From Candidatus Nitrosocaldaceae archaeon (GTDB taxonomy: Archaea; Thermoproteota; Nitrososphaeria; Nitrososphaerales; Nitrosocaldaceae), in NCBI GenBank assembly GCA_026002835.1, contig BPGC01000008.1, forward strand, positions 13,979 to 77,978: a stretch of DNA of 64,000 nt, in the 5' to 3' direction. Shown here piece after piece: positions 50,902-57,206 of this stretch. Each line of letters opens with the position of its first letter. Position 1 is the stretch's first letter. Under the pieces are notes generated by a model that was given only the letters and a program-made list of their open reading frames with translations, was not told where the DNA came from and did not search any database. The position numbers and the translations under genes are program-made.

Positions 50902-51102
50902 TACAAGTTTAGCATTTAAACCATCATACCTAGCATATCTAACTGGAATTTTTAACCCTCATAACATTCTATCTAATCCAGATATAAGTATTATGCTTTA
51001 ATAAAGTTCATATAACAACTAATGTTTCTTCTAAATTCTTTATCCGATGTCTAAATTCATATACATAGGTTAGTTATGAAATAGATATTCTAAAATACAT
51101 AC

Positions 51103-52087
51103 TAGTGTGTCGAATAACTGATAGATCACTAGCAACATAAAAGATATTGATCACCATTATAATTAAGATGATATGCCTAGAGATTGGAAATCGTATAATG
51201 AAGCATTAGTAAGAAGAGGAGAGATATTATTATCATTAGATTTCATTAATAATTGGGATAAGGAATTAGAAGAGATGAATAAAGGTAAAGAAGGCAAACC
51301 TTATCAATATCCTAACTCATTCATATCATTACTAGCAATAATACATGCATATCTATTACCATATAGACAGTTAGAAGGTTTCATTAGAGCATTAAGCAAT
51401 TATACTAACATTAAGGTTCCAGATTATACTAGCATAGCATGGAGAGTTAATAGATTAAATGTTAAGATGGATAATAATATCAATACAAATGAACCTATTA
51501 TTATAGTAGTAGATTCTTCTGGTATTAAAGTAGCTAATAGAGGAGAATGGATGAATAAGAAATGGAAGGTAAGAAGAGGCTTTATAAAGATGCATATAGC
51601 TGTTGATATCAAAAATAAGAAGATAATAGCATTAGAGATAACTAGAGAAGATGTTCATGATAATAAGAAGTTTAAAGACCTTATAGATAATATAGATGCT
51701 AAAATAGATAAGGTTATAGTTGATGGAGCATATGATAGTAATGATAACTTTAATTATCTAACAGATAAAGGTATAGAACCAGTAATTAGAGTAAGAAGTA
51801 ATTCTATAATCAATAATAGTATAAGGGATATGCATGTATTAGATCAATTGAGTGATTATACTAGATGGAAGCATAAGCATGATTATGGTAAGAGATGGAT
51901 AGCAGAATCTGTATTCTCATCATTTAAGAGAATGTTTGGAGAGTATATTAAATCAGTAAGATGGGATAATATGGTTAAAGAGTTGATGGTTAAAGCAAGT
52001 GCATATAACTTGTTTATATCTATGAGTAATGGATATGGTTAAGAGATATATGATATGTACTCTGTTAATGAGTTATTCAACACAGCA
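51103..52087 (+). mobile_element. IS5-like insertion sequence, copy 1 (985 bp)
   Basis: The left end TAGTGTGTCGAATAAC and right end (reverse complement) TGCTGTGTTGAATAAC match at 13 of 16 positions. The same boundaries delimit the second copy at 56125. The element is 985 bp with one transposase gene. Its right flank TAGCAATTG (52088-52096) is the inverted copy of the outer flank of copy 2, and its left flank AATACATAC has no partner. Confidence 0.85.
51173..52042 (+). CDS. IS5-like DDE transposase (copy 1)
   Basis: The 289-residue transposase is identical to the one at 56170. Residues around VVDSSGIKV, VIVDGAYDSNDNF and KRWIAESVFSSFKRMF carry the DDE triad. The last has the R-x3-E-x6-K arrangement of the IS5 family. 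The frame is intact, and identity with the second copy suggests recent activity. It is about 45% identical by eye to the transposase at 54013. Confidence 0.93.
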   Translation: MPRDWKSYNEALVRRGEILLSLDFINNWDKELEEMNKGKEGKPYQYPNSFISLLAIIHAYLLPYRQLEGFIRALSNYTNIKVPDYTSIAWRVNRLNVKMDNNINTNEPIIIVVDSSGIKVANRGEWMNKKWKVRRGFIKMHIAVDIKNKKIIALEITREDVHDNKKFKDLIDNIDAKIDKVIVDGAYDSNDNFNYLTDKGIEPVIRVRSNSIINNSIRDMHVLDQLSDYTRWKHKHDYGKRWIAESVFSSFKRMFGEYIKSVRWDNMVKELMVKASAYNLFISMSNGYG

Positions 52088-52096
52088 TAGCAATTG

Positions 52097-52245
52097 CAAT
52101 ATTCTTAGGAATCGGATTATGGCTAATTAGACAGCTTAGACTGTTTAATGTCATTAATCTAATTAGACGTCGTATAATACTGGGTATTATTCTTATTATA
52201 AGTGAAATAGGAATAATATATTATGTTATTATAACAATACAATAG
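52097..52245 (+). pseudogene. 3' fragment of a membrane-protein gene split by IS inversion
   Basis: Beginning right after the 9-bp duplication, the frame encodes IFLGIGLWLIRQLRLF, then a second hydrophobic segment (IILGIILIISEIGIIYYVII), and stops at 52243-52245. Its 5' part is on the other strand at 57110-57206. The two pieces rejoin in frame across one copy of TAGCAATTG to give exactly 82 codons. Confidence 0.75.
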
Positions 52246-52424
52246 CACTAATCTATGTTATAATAAAGAATATCAACTAATCATCAATAATAACCAAGGT
52301 CAATAACAAATACTAACAAAATATTATTAAAAACTGCAAATAGAACATTTATAGATATTTACCTAGAGTTATGTGATATATTGCTAATATAATATTTATA
52401 AGATATTAATTAACAATAACTGAT

Positions 52425-53930
52425 ATGAAAGGTAAGAAATACGTTCTTAGTGCTGATAGAACGTTAATGTCTCATTATAGAGATAACATGCTTTTTGGAT
52501 TCATAGCAACCTTTCCAGCAGAGAAGATACCTCCATTCATATACAAAACTGTATTCTGCCCAACTATAGAGTTTGATAAGGATACTGGAGAAGCATTTGT
52601 AGCACCTCTCGGCTTAAGAAGAGTTGAGAGTGGCTTATTAAAAGAGTTCGATAAGCAAGATGTATTCATAGCACATCCAGATTATATTGAGAAGGCTATA
52701 GGAGAGGATACAAAGATAGTAGGGTTGAATGTTATGGATCCTAGAGGTATAGGACCAGTTCCATCTGCATTAACACAAGGTAAGATGACTCCAATAAATA
52801 GAATATCATTCAGAAATTTATGCAATAGGGTTAAAGAGTTGAAGAAAAAGTATAACTTCAAAGTTGTTGTTGGAGGTCCAGGAGCATGGCAGTTCTCATT
52901 TAGCAAAAGCGAGAGGGAAGAGTATGGTATAGATCATGTAGTTATTGGAGAAGCTGATGATAAGATAGTTAACATATATAATGATATAATACATGATAAA
53001 GCTGATGAGGTTATATTCTCAAGAACATATACTCTAGAAGAGATACCATACATAAAAGGTCCTACTACTAATGGTTGTATTGAAGCTATGAGAGGCTGCG
53101 GTAGAGGTTGTGATTTCTGTGATCCAAATCTTAGGAAGAAGCGAGACTTTCCTATTGATAGATTGAAAGAAGAGGCTATGATTAACCTTAGATATGGTAT
53201 TACTAGTGTATGGTTACAATCAGAAGAGATATTGTTATATGGATCGGATAATAAAGAGTTAATACCTAACAAAGATGCAGTAACAGAATTGTTCAAAGAA
53301 TTGAAATCGTTACCAAACGTCAATTATGTAGGAGCAATACATCTAACATTCTCATCTGCTATGGCAGAACCAGAATGTGTGAAAGCTATGAGCACTATAA
53401 ACAATTTCGGGCCAGATAGATGGAACGGAGTTCAAGTTGGATTAGAAACAGCATCACCAAGCCTCATAGCAAAGCATATGCCTTATAAGGTAAAACCTTT
53501 CAGCCCAGAAGAATGGCCATGGGTTGTAAGGAATGGAATAAAATTATTGAACGATAATTACTACTTTGTAGCAAATACATTGATCATAGGTTTACCAGGA
53601 GAGACTGATGATGATGTCAGAGATACAATCGAATTATTAAAAAGTTTAGATGGAATGGCTACAGTAGTGGCTCCTATGTTCTATACAGATTATCATGATC
53701 CTACTAGATCATTATATGGAGAAAATATGACTAAGATGCAATGGGAATTATACTTTAGATGTTGGTATCTTACAGCAAAAACAGTATCAAATTGGTTCTG
53801 GTATGGAACTGCACATTTCAGTCCAATTATGAGGATGATAGCTGCTACATTCGGTAAATTTGGTTCATGGTATGTTCTTAAACTGATCCGTGATGGAGCA
53901 AAGAAGCATGCTGGGATTTATTTAGACTGA
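52425..53930 (+). CDS. B12-binding radical SAM protein
   Basis: The 501-aa protein has an N-terminal cobalamin-binding-like Rossmann region (KIVGLNVMDPRGIGP, KVVVGGPGAWQF, VVIGEADDKI). A radical SAM core follows with the cluster motif CGRGCDFC (C-x3-C-x2-C, near residue 226) and later LIIGLPGETDDDV. The general architecture resembles archaeal lipid-modifying radical SAM enzymes such as GrsA/GrsB or Tes. Which substrate it acts on is not shown by the sequence. A TATA-like box (about 52390-52401) precedes the ATG. Confidence 0.85.
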   Translation: MKGKKYVLSADRTLMSHYRDNMLFGFIATFPAEKIPPFIYKTVFCPTIEFDKDTGEAFVAPLGLRRVESGLLKEFDKQDVFIAHPDYIEKAIGEDTKIVGLNVMDPRGIGPVPSALTQGKMTPINRISFRNLCNRVKELKKKYNFKVVVGGPGAWQFSFSKSEREEYGIDHVVIGEADDKIVNIYNDIIHDKADEVIFSRTYTLEEIPYIKGPTTNGCIEAMRGCGRGCDFCDPNLRKKRDFPIDRLKEEAMINLRYGITSVWLQSEEILLYGSDNKELIPNKDAVTELFKELKSLPNVNYVGAIHLTFSSAMAEPECVKAMSTINNFGPDRWNGVQVGLETASPSLIAKHMPYKVKPFSPEEWPWVVRNGIKLLNDNYYFVANTLIIGLPGETDDDVRDTIELLKSLDGMATVVAPMFYTDYHDPTRSLYGENMTKMQWELYFRCWYLTAKTVSNWFWYGTAHFSPIMRMIAATFGKFGSWYVLKLIRDGAKKHAGIYLD

Positions 53931-53959
53931 TTTCTGTATTATAATTTTTCATAATTTTA

Positions 53960-54932
53960 TGCTTTGTGGACTAACCGATAACCTTATTGATCAGTGATAT
54001 ATATACTATGATATGAATTGGCATGATATAGATGAAAGATTAATCAAAAGAGGTGAGATATTATTATCACTAGATTTTATTGATAACTATGATAAAGAGT
54101 TAGAAGAGTTAAATAAGCATAAGGTAGGAAGACCATATCAGATTACCAATAATTATGCACAATTCCTAGCAATAATAAGGTATATGCTAGATATACCATA
54201 TAGACAGTTAGAAGGTTTTACTATAGCATTAAATAGATTAATACCTAAACTTAAACCAGTAGATTACTCTGAAATAAGGAAGAGGTTAATCAAACTAGAT
54301 TATAAATTTGATATAAAGAATGATGATAATAAGCCTATAAGTATAGCATTAGACTCATCTGGTGTTAAAGTTCATAAATCATATGGATGGATTGAAAGGA
54401 AACATGGTATAAAGAAGCATTACATAAAGATACATTTTGCTGTTAATATCAATACTAAAGAGATTATAGATATGCAAATAACTAGAGATGATATAACAGA
54501 TAGTAAAGCAGCATTAGATATTATGAATGATATAATTAATGATAAGATAGATAAGGTATATGCTGATGGTGCTTATGATACATTACCATTGTATAAGTTA
54601 TTAGAAGATAATAATATAGAAGCAATTATCAAGCCTAGAAGGAATGCTAGATATACAAATTATAAAGATAGAAATGATAATGTTAGATGTATTAAGCAAT
54701 TAGGATATAAGCAATGGTCTAAATTAAAAGGGTATGGCAAAAGATGGATGGTAGAAACTGTATATTCATCATTTAAAAGAATGTTTAATGAGTATTGTTT
54801 GGCAAGATCATTTGAGTATATAAAGAAGGAGATTATTACTAAGGTATGTATATACAATATGCTTATCAACCTTAGATGATTATTATAATAATAATTATCT
54901 AGTTATGTAGATGATAATTGATCCACAAAGCA
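53960..54932 (+). mobile_element. Second, related IS5-like insertion sequence (973 bp)
   Basis: The ends TGCTTTGTGGA (left) and its complement TCCACAAAGCA (right) form an 11-bp terminal inverted repeat. Direct repeats of TAATTTTA, 53952-53959 and 54933-54940, flank the element. CA also precedes each repeat, so the duplication is 8 to 10 bp. The inserted element follows the radical SAM stop by 29 bp. Its terminus TGCTTTGTGGACTAAC resembles TGCTGTGTTGAATAAC of the other IS, so the two are relatives. Confidence 0.8.
54013..54879 (+). CDS. IS5-like DDE transposase, divergent relative
   Basis: The 288-aa protein shares the order of the other transposase: [30 protein letters not shown] (first Asp), VYADGAYDTLPLY (second Asp), KRWMVETVYSSFKRMF (Glu with the downstream Lys). 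The frame is intact and may be functional. Its difference from the 985-bp element indicates a separate subfamily. Confidence 0.92.
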   Translation: MNWHDIDERLIKRGEILLSLDFIDNYDKELEELNKHKVGRPYQITNNYAQFLAIIRYMLDIPYRQLEGFTIALNRLIPKLKPVDYSEIRKRLIKLDYKFDIKNDDNKPISIALDSSGVKVHKSYGWIERKHGIKKHYIKIHFAVNINTKEIIDMQITRDDITDSKAALDIMNDIINDKIDKVYADGAYDTLPLYKLLEDNNIEAIIKPRRNARYTNYKDRNDNVRCIKQLGYKQWSKLKGYGKRWMVETVYSSFKRMFNEYCLARSFEYIKKEIITKVCIYNMLINLR

Positions 54933-54999
54933 TAATTTTATTATATTTCATATCATCATATCATAAAATATATATGTAGAGTTACTGTTATCATAAATT

Positions 55000-56061
55000 A
55001 TGCTGAAAACAATAATTGCTATAATTACTTTAAGTACAGTATTATTAGCAGCAAATGCACAAGCACAAATACCCATACCAAATATCGAGATTAAAACGGT
55101 TGAAGGTAAATATGTTAATGAAGAATTGGGTATAGAGATCACATTACCAGAAGGCTGGTCTGGTATGGAGTTTCCATCTATGGTATTACCAAGTTCACCA
55201 TTAATTGCAGGTTTTGGAGCTGCGCCTGGGGGTATTGATATGACAGGTATGTCAGTAGGCTCTCCAATGATGATGCTTGTAGTAATGGATGCTGAAAAGG
55301 CTAAAGAGATAAAAGCTGAACCTCCATCTACAGAAGAGTTTACAGAACCTACAGAACCAGAGACAGTAGAAAGTAAAGTAGAATGTAGAGTATTATCATT
55401 TAATCTAGTAGATGTTGATGGAGCTAAAGGAATGGAAGGCGTTGTAGAATGTGATACAGAGGATGAGAATGGAAATCCTATAACTATTAGAGCTAAAGGT
55501 TTATGGGTATCACAAGAGTTTGATAATACAATAAGAACAATACAAGTAATGTTCAGTTCTAAAGTCGAGGATTATGACAAGTATATTAATGACTTTGACA
55601 ATTCTCTGCAGACACTTAGAATATCTAATGCAAAACCATTATCGATGAACCTTGAGAAAGAGGTAGTTGAGAAGGTTATAATAGATGATACTGAAGTTGA
55701 TATAAAGATATCAAGTAATTCGGATATAAGCAATGTACAGTTTAATGAGGAAGATAAAAGCATCTCATTCAAAGTTGAAGGTAGTGATGGAAGTCTAGGT
55801 ATGGCTGAGATATATTTAAGTAATGTTCTAAAAGGTCCTTATACAGTAACAATAGATGGTGAACCTATAGATGCTATACCTATTGTAAACCCAGAAACCA
55901 ATGAAGAGGGTATAAAGATAGTATATATGCATAGCATACATGAGGTAAAGATTGTTGGAACAGAGGTAGTTCCAGAATTCCCATTAGCTGTGTTACCAAT
56001 ACTTGCAATAATAACTGGAACAATAATATTATTGACTAGAAAGAGCAGTTTGAATATTTAA
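55000..56061 (+). CDS. Secreted protein with PEF sorting tail, 353 aa
   Basis: A signal peptide (MLKTIIAIITLSTVLLAANAQA) is followed by a domain like the PsbP/DUF-type lipoprotein fold (GKYVNEELGIEITLPEGWSGME), a linker rich in Glu, Thr and Pro (about 110-125), and a beta-rich region. The tail is VVPEFPLAVLPILAIITG, a membrane helix and RKSSLNI. The protein is probably held at the cell surface like those at 31196 and 32402. A TATA-like AATATATAT lies about 27 nt before the ATG. The gene lies in the inverted IS-bounded segment. Confidence 0.75.
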   Translation: MLKTIIAIITLSTVLLAANAQAQIPIPNIEIKTVEGKYVNEELGIEITLPEGWSGMEFPSMVLPSSPLIAGFGAAPGGIDMTGMSVGSPMMMLVVMDAEKAKEIKAEPPSTEEFTEPTEPETVESKVECRVLSFNLVDVDGAKGMEGVVECDTEDENGNPITIRAKGLWVSQEFDNTIRTIQVMFSSKVEDYDKYINDFDNSLQTLRISNAKPLSMNLEKEVVEKVIIDDTEVDIKISSNSDISNVQFNEEDKSISFKVEGSDGSLGMAEIYLSNVLKGPYTVTIDGEPIDAIPIVNPETNEEGIKIVYMHSIHEVKIVGTEVVPEFPLAVLPILAIITGTIILLTRKSSLNI

Positions 56062-56124
56062 TAATTTTCCATATATTTTTGATTGTCTATTAATACAGTT
56101 ATACTATATTATATGCCATTACTC

Positions 56125-57109
56125 TGCTGTGTTGAATAACTCATTAACAGAGTACATATCATATATCTCTTAACCATATCCATTACTCATAGATATAAAC
56201 AAGTTATATGCACTTGCTTTAACCATCAACTCTTTAACCATATTATCCCATCTTACTGATTTAATATACTCTCCAAACATTCTCTTAAATGATGAGAATA
56301 CAGATTCTGCTATCCATCTCTTACCATAATCATGCTTATGCTTCCATCTAGTATAATCACTCAATTGATCTAATACATGCATATCCCTTATACTATTATT
56401 GATTATAGAATTACTTCTTACTCTAATTACTGGTTCTATACCTTTATCTGTTAGATAATTAAAGTTATCATTACTATCATATGCTCCATCAACTATAACC
56501 TTATCTATTTTAGCATCTATATTATCTATAAGGTCTTTAAACTTCTTATTATCATGAACATCTTCTCTAGTTATCTCTAATGCTATTATCTTCTTATTTT
56601 TGATATCAACAGCTATATGCATCTTTATAAAGCCTCTTCTTACCTTCCATTTCTTATTCATCCATTCTCCTCTATTAGCTACTTTAATACCAGAAGAATC
56701 TACTACTATAATAATAGGTTCATTTGTATTGATATTATTATCCATCTTAACATTTAATCTATTAACTCTCCATGCTATGCTAGTATAATCTGGAACCTTA
56801 ATGTTAGTATAATTGCTTAATGCTCTAATGAAACCTTCTAACTGTCTATATGGTAATAGATATGCATGTATTATTGCTAGTAATGATATGAATGAGTTAG
56901 GATATTGATAAGGTTTGCCTTCTTTACCTTTATTCATCTCTTCTAATTCCTTATCCCAATTATTAATGAAATCTAATGATAATAATATCTCTCCTCTTCT
57001 TACTAATGCTTCATTATACGATTTCCAATCTCTAGGCATATCATCTTAATTATAATGGTGATCAATATCTTTTATGTTGCTAGTGATCTATCAGTTATTC
57101 GACACACTA
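56125..57109 (-). mobile_element. IS5-like insertion sequence, copy 2 (985 bp, opposite orientation)
   Basis: The same length and termini as copy 1, read from the other strand. The right flank CAATTGCTA (57110-57118) is the reverse complement of the right flank of copy 1. Undoing an inversion between the copies would place CAATTGCTA directly on both sides of this copy, the hallmark of a 9-bp target duplication. Confidence 0.88.
56170..57039 (-). CDS. IS5-like DDE transposase (copy 2)
   Basis: The product is identical over all 289 residues to the transposase at 51173-52042, including VVDSSGIKV, VDGAYDSND and RWIAESVFSSFK. A perfect duplicate implies recent copying or gene conversion. Identical inverted copies 4 kb apart are a standing substrate for homologous recombination and inversion. 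Confidence 0.93.
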   Translation of the reverse strand: MPRDWKSYNEALVRRGEILLSLDFINNWDKELEEMNKGKEGKPYQYPNSFISLLAIIHAYLLPYRQLEGFIRALSNYTNIKVPDYTSIAWRVNRLNVKMDNNINTNEPIIIVVDSSGIKVANRGEWMNKKWKVRRGFIKMHIAVDIKNKKIIALEITREDVHDNKKFKDLIDNIDAKIDKVIVDGAYDSNDNFNYLTDKGIEPVIRVRSNSIINNSIRDMHVLDQLSDYTRWKHKHDYGKRWIAESVFSSFKRMFGEYIKSVRWDNMVKELMVKASAYNLFISMSNGYG

Positions 57110-57206
57110 CAATTGCTAAATAAAGAATGTTATCTATTAGATCATATAGTTCATTTTGTAAGAAAGTATCAAATAATATTATCATTATAGATAAAGTAGA
57201 TGTCAT
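57110..57206 (-). pseudogene. 5' fragment of a membrane-protein gene split by IS inversion
   Basis: An ATG at 57206-57204 starts MTSTLSIMIILFDTFLQNEL, and the frame runs into the IS at 57110 after YDLIDNILYLAI. The missing 3' part lies at 52097-52245. The joined reading frame of 246 nt encodes an 81-aa protein with two membrane helices. The ATG is 2 nt after the stop of the upstream frame, so the two were an operon. Confidence 0.75.

What the first reader, a model, noticed from the sequence alone, without database searches (positions are those of the whole stretch)
51094..57206. IS-driven inversion shown by one gene cut into two opposite-strand pieces
Two 985-bp IS copies with identical transposases lie inverted. 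TAGCAATTG follows copy 1 (52088-52096) and its reverse complement CAATTGCTA follows copy 2 (57110-57118). If the segment between the copies is flipped back, copy 2 has direct 9-bp repeats on both sides. The 97-nt frame at 57206-57110 then continues into the 149-nt frame at 52097-52245 to give 82 codons, an 81-aa two-helix membrane protein. Either recombination between copies or replicative intramolecular transposition explains it. In the ancestral order a small membrane operon, the radical SAM gene and the secreted-protein gene all read in one direction.
Basis: seen in the sequence. Interest (0 to 1): 0.8.

Follow-up and report, generated by a model that had tools for sequence, protein, structure and literature searches.

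The report
IS-bounded inversion splitting small gene
In a hot-spring archaeon, a small jumping gene landed in a tiny membrane-protein gene and the 4-kb stretch between its two copies appears to have flipped, leaving the gene in two opposite-facing halves; it is a clear example of a well-known kind of genome rearrangement.

Summary
Two identical 985-bp IS5-family copies lie inverted (51103-52087 +, 56125-57109 -). Neither has its own target duplication; they share the 9-mer TAGCAATTG as an inverted pair, about 3e-5 per random pair of positions. Of 25 relative loci with a detected terminal-repeat pair, 19 have their own direct repeat of 8 bp or more, against 0 of 600 cross-paired flanks. Nitrosocaldaceae MAG, by its name from the HiFi metagenome of Katase hot spring. 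So the intact gene is most likely ancestral. New here: copy 1 has no duplication even in the restored order, so an earlier event probably touched it; and the 120 best of 1,721 transposase hits are at most 60% identical, so the IS looks absent from that MAG's annotation. One-step replicative inversion and insertion followed by recombination leave identical DNA; I favour the first, about 50:38. A misoriented assembly is not excluded. Ordinary mechanism, clean example.

The parts
51103..52087 (+). IS copy 1 (985 bp, IS5 family), upstream of carA; transposase ORF 51173-52042
   Evidence: NCBIfam NF033579 transpos_IS5_2 258.3 bits, cut-off 140
56125..57109 (-). IS copy 2 (985 bp, identical to copy 1); transposase ORF 56170-57039
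52088..52096 (+). TAGCAATTG, one half of the 9-bp target duplication, now beside copy 1
57110..57118 (-). TAGCAATTG read on the minus strand, the other half of the target duplication, outside copy 2
57110..57206 (-). 5' part (codons 1-32 plus one base) of the split 81-aa gene; as it stands the frame runs into the IS and stops after 44 aa (57206-57072)
52097..52245 (+). 3' part (last two bases of codon 33, codons 34-81 and the stop) of the split 81-aa gene
52088..56124 (.). inverted 4,037-bp segment: gene 3' part, radical SAM gene, inner IS, secreted-protein gene
51094..51102 (+). AATACATAC, outer flank of copy 1; a duplication of neither its present nor its restored partner (3 of 9 matches with each)
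56116..56124 (-). GAGTAATGG read on the minus strand, inner flank of copy 2 and partner of copy 1 in the restored order; not a duplication of AATACATAC, but 6 of 9 like TAGCAATTG
52425..53930 (+). radical SAM protein, 501 aa (weak B12-binding match below cut-off), inside the flipped segment
   Evidence: PF04055 53.1 bits, cut-off 29.5; PF02310 21 bits, cut-off 32.1; 75-79% identity in 6 of 7 family genomes
53960..54932 (+). second, different IS5-family element (transposase 54013-54879) with direct repeats of 8-9 bp at its ends (shared 11-mer CATAATTTTAT at 53950 and 54931); a separate simple insertion
   Evidence: exact ends ambiguous by a base or two
55000..56061 (+). secreted protein with a PEFG-CTERM sorting signal, 353 aa
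   Evidence: TIGR04296 35.6 bits, cut-off 25

Best explanation
A 985-bp IS5-family element sat upstream of carA (copy 1). It transposed within the chromosome into a target about 4 kb away, inside an 81-aa membrane-protein gene, with a 9-bp staggered cut at TAGCAATTG. Most likely this was one replicative event: the IS was copied while joined to the target, the 4,037-bp segment between the two copies was inverted, and one copy of the 9-bp duplication ended up beside each IS in inverted sense. The gene was left as a 32-codon start and a 48-codon end on opposite strands, so the protein is lost. Shown: identical inverted copies, inverted duplication pair, identical intact protein in another record. 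Inferred: that the intact state came first, that it took one step, and the loss of function.
For: Identical copies and shared 9-mer in inverted sense. Intact 81-aa protein P0001, 100% identity over 100% of the query, from another record. Own direct repeats are the rule among relatives of this IS: 19 of 25 loci with a detected terminal-repeat pair, 0 of 600 cross-pairs. One step needs no separate recombination event and accounts for donor and target lying close together (inference). Replicative inversion as a product of intramolecular transposition is described in passages of PMC2723962; replicative as well as conservative transposition of IS5-family elements in the introduction of PMC11708052.
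Against: Two steps (ordinary insertion, then recombination between the copies) give the same DNA. Copy 1 lacks a duplication in the restored order, so this event is not the whole story. Lack of a duplication is not unique: 6 of the 25 relative loci had none, of which 2 look like false terminal-repeat pairs. I could not fetch the KatS3mg003 contig, so the other junction and the order of neighbours were not seen in an uninverted relative.
Confidence: 0.5

Rival explanations
1. Two steps: copy 2 inserted into the 81-aa gene by ordinary transposition with a 9-bp duplication, in opposite orientation to copy 1; later homologous recombination between the copies flipped the segment, perhaps reversibly in the population.
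For: Same DNA evidence. 985 bp of perfect identity 4 kb apart is good substrate (inference). The introduction of PMC11708052 calls recombination between dispersed IS copies a common cause of large rearrangements.
Against: Needs two events, and a second insertion by chance within about 4 kb of the first and in opposite orientation.
Confidence: 0.38
2. Assembly artefact: copy 2 is a simple insertion with direct repeats, and the assembler joined the segment between two identical copies in the wrong orientation.
For: Both traversals are equally valid for reads shorter than the 985-bp repeat (inference). The reads and the source record could not be seen (no genome held).
Against: A contig that runs through two exact 985-bp copies 4 kb apart suggests long reads, which fix the orientation (inference). 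Copy 2's insertion into the gene would be real in any case.
Confidence: 0.09
3. The two pieces are separate genes or chance frames, and the 9-mer is coincidence.
For: An open join of at least 81 codons arose in 17,285 of 100,000 random joins.
Against: 100% identity of the rejoined protein to an intact database protein; 9-mer chance about 3e-5.
Confidence: 0.01

Closest known systems
Replicative inversion by intramolecular transposition (passages of PMC2723962, which names Tn5, Mu and Tn3)
   Same: A new copy at the target, the segment between old and new copy inverted; target duplication split between the two copies (this last point recalled)
   Different: Here an IS5-family element in an archaeon, and the event is inferred from sequence, not observed
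Inversion by recombination between inverted IS copies (IS-IS recombination as a common cause of rearrangements: introduction of PMC11708052)
   Same: Breakpoints exactly at identical IS copies, duplications exchanged between them
   Different: Cannot be told from the first by this sequence
IS5-family insertion sequences (NCBIfam NF033579)
   Same: Transposase above the family cut-off; terminal repeats and 8-9 bp duplication as in relatives
   Different: At most 60% identity to the 120 best of 1,721 database hits, so probably an undescribed IS of the family; ISfinder was not available

Membership tests
IS5 family insertion sequence | Transposase above the curated family cut-off | tested here: met
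   NF033579 258.3 bits against cut-off 140; PF01609 and PF13737 above cut-off
IS5 family insertion sequence | Terminal inverted repeats at both ends | tested here: met
   TAGTGTGTCGAATAACT / TGCTGTGTTGAATAACT, 3 mismatches in 17
IS5 family insertion sequence | Short target duplication (mostly 8-9 bp, up to 11 read, in relatives here) | tested here: met
   9 bp for copy 2 after restoring the order; 19 of 25 relative loci with 8 bp or more. For copy 1: not met in either order
IS-driven inversion | Both breakpoints at inverted, near-identical IS copies | tested here: met
IS-driven inversion | Target duplication restored on flipping back | tested here: met
   for copy 2 only
IS-driven inversion | Uninverted order in a relative | tested here: inconclusive
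   The joined gene exists intact as a protein, which fixes the junction at the target; the other junction could not be read
Replicative inversion (one step) | No intermediate with the insertion but without the inversion | not testable with these tools
   needs sibling strains or reads

The most novel reading that the evidence does not exclude
A recently arrived IS5-family element in a thermophilic Nitrosocaldaceae archaeon made at least two successive replicative rearrangements at one locus: first one that removed or displaced DNA next to copy 1 (leaving it without a duplication), then a 4-kb replicative inversion through a membrane-protein gene, with both orientations possibly still present in the spring.
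Probability: 0.3. Interest if true: 0.35.

Novelty: new member of a known kind. Interest (0 to 1): 0.2.

Why it matters
It is an unusually complete forensic case: both breakpoints, the split duplication and an intact twin of the broken gene. It suggests that a small, apparently recent IS reshapes gene order and inactivates a gene in an uncultured member of a family of ammonia oxidisers, and the public HiFi contigs and reads named in PMC9671151 should allow the intact order to be read directly. The mechanism itself is textbook.

Tried and rejected
No whole genome of the window is held, so a copy count, third copies and the partner of AATACATAC could not be sought. In the 7 held family genomes the 81-aa protein had no match better than E 0.11, and the window's species seems not to be among them (best radical SAM identity 79%, best carA identity 80%), so they could not show the order at the locus. 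A conserved operon of radical SAM and secreted-protein genes was rejected: 660 kb apart in G002, on different contigs in G003, G004 and G006, and not together in any of the ten fetched stretches around one or the other; separate contigs alone would not exclude it. The open joined frame as proof by itself was rejected (17,285 of 100,000 random joins). Viral contigs held neither a 33-base stretch of the joined gene nor the 30-base IS end (exact matches only). Locus-tag numbers as a guide to gene order in KatS3mg003 failed: the identical match to the secreted protein carries no name or source. Limits of the duplication count: one search covered 400 genomes drawn evenly from a larger class, scored at most 6 candidates a genome, found 29 of 400 with a match at E 1e-60 and gave 30 loci; one search added copies chosen from three of those genomes. 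Of 38 loci, 13 were set aside (10 by length, taken as cut by a contig end; 3 with no terminal-repeat pair under the motif used, among them L102, for which one search had found terminal repeats and a 9-bp repeat). Of the 25 kept, 6 had no direct repeat: L103 and L139 look like false pairs, L106, L111, L118 and L128 are real misses. L136, L137, L138 and L141 repeat places already counted and were left out.

Full report
What is there. The window is archaeal (partial archaeal 16S rRNA gene at 1-862; G+C 32.6%). Its carA is 80% identical to that of G001, the genome that holds the Candidatus Nitrosothermus koennekii locus L001, and 69-71% to that of five other family genomes; the seventh, G007, has no such match. 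So it is probably a member of Ca. Nitrosocaldaceae near Nitrosothermus (inference). Two copies of a 985-bp element, identical base for base, lie inverted at 51103-52087 and 56125-57109. Their transposase passes the NCBIfam cut-off for IS5_2.

The duplication. An IS of this group normally stands between direct repeats of its target. Among relatives fetched here, 19 of 25 loci with a detected terminal-repeat pair have an own direct repeat of at least 8 bp; 0 of 600 cross-paired flanks do (38 loci examined, 13 set aside). The six copies taken from G103, of 38 first-look candidates there, each have one. The window's copies have none of their own; instead TAGCAATTG stands right of copy 1 and, in inverted sense, outside copy 2. 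Two random positions of the window share a 9-mer in 6 and 7 of 200,000 draws. Flipping 52088-56124 back puts TAGCAATTG on both sides of copy 2.

The gene. The pieces 57206-57110 and 52097-52245 then join, with one copy of the 9-mer, into an 81-aa frame with two hydrophobic stretches. An open join by itself is not rare (17,285 of 100,000 random joins). But a search of about 5.8 billion proteins, with 9 candidates scored, found one protein at E up to 1: KatS3mg003_0463 of a Candidatus Nitrosocaldaceae archaeon, on a 242,621-bp contig, identical over all 81 residues. PMC9671151 (passages seen) describes mg003 as a medium-quality archaeal MAG of the family Nitrosocaldaceae from PacBio HiFi reads of Katase hot spring sediment; that KatS3mg003 is this mg003 is my inference from the name. 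An IS insertion with a target duplication is the derived state, so the intact gene is most likely ancestral.

First, copy 1 has no duplication in the restored order either: AATACATAC and GAGTAATGG agree at 3 of 9 positions. As the two copies are identical and hence young, decay is unlikely; an earlier rearrangement at copy 1, such as an adjacent deletion or exchange with a third copy, is the simplest reason (inference). An insertion that left no duplication is another: the abstract of PMC11708052 proposes this for IS movements tied to large rearrangements, an IS5 case among them. In G001 a different gene lies just upstream of carA (L093 1016-2047); it was not found in the window, nor in the carA stretches fetched from five other family genomes. 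Second, the transposase search listed the best 120 of 1,721 hits, none above 60% identity, although the database holds the KatS3mg003 protein. So the element seems absent from that MAG's annotated proteins, and both copies probably came after the split from it; an unannotated or unassembled copy, or a protein the database does not hold, would escape this. Third, the block that becomes co-directional after flipping back is not conserved in the relatives held. Fourth, unexplained: the right-hand flanks of the two copies in the restored order, GAGTAATGGCA at copy 1 and TAGCAATTGCA at copy 2, agree at 8 of 11 positions, which 664 of 200,000 random pairs reach (6 of 9: 3,902 of 200,000). This comparison was chosen after seeing it; it may be target preference or chance.

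Mechanism. A single intramolecular replicative transposition from copy 1 into the 81-aa gene yields exactly this structure; so does ordinary insertion followed by recombination between the copies. Passages of PMC2723962 describe replicative inversions. The introduction of PMC11708052 states that IS5-family elements use replicative and conservative transposition and that recombination between IS copies is a common cause of rearrangement. I favour one step for economy and because donor and target are close, at about 0.5 to 0.38, with 0.09 for a misoriented assembly; these odds are judgement.

Verdict. The kind of event is well known. In the paper library, searches for Nitrosocaldaceae or KatS3mg (20 of 30 papers listed), archaea with insertion sequences and inversions (7 papers, none) and swapped duplications (one paper) showed no report of this locus that I could recognise from titles and beginnings of abstracts. 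A word search of PMC7819960, the paper on nine Nitrosocaldaceae MAGs, found no occurrence of transpos-, insertion sequence, mobile element, inversion or synteny. This is a limited search.

Noticed in passing
57616-57209 (minus strand): The small gene just upstream of the split gene has an in-frame TAA at 57364-57362 after 84 codons; the same frame then stays open for 50 more codons and ends 2 bases before the ATG of the 81-aa gene. It may be a broken gene or two short ones. No clear relative in 7 family genomes (best E 0.006 over 40 residues).
   Followed up: partly
53950-54941: A second, different IS5-family element sits inside the flipped segment with direct repeats of 8-9 bp, so the locus has been hit by at least two IS types.
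   Followed up: yes
55000-56061: The secreted PEFG-CTERM protein has an identical database entry on a 77,978-bp contig with source not shown, yet the window's transposase has no entry above 60% identity among those listed. Either another record of this species lacks the IS, or its gene was not called there.
   Followed up: partly
52088-52098 and 56114-56124: The right-hand flanks of the two IS copies in the restored order agree at 8 of 11 bases (664 of 200,000 random pairs do as well): target preference or chance.
   Followed up: partly
L093 1016-2047: In G001 a gene that looks by eye like an inositol-phosphate-synthase relative (recalled, no call) lies just upstream of carA; the window has IS copy 1 upstream of carA instead.
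   Followed up: partly
52425-53930: The radical SAM gene is 75-79% identical to genes in 6 family genomes, but the best match in G001, otherwise the closest by carA, is only 48%: loss there, an incomplete genome, or transfer.
   Followed up: no
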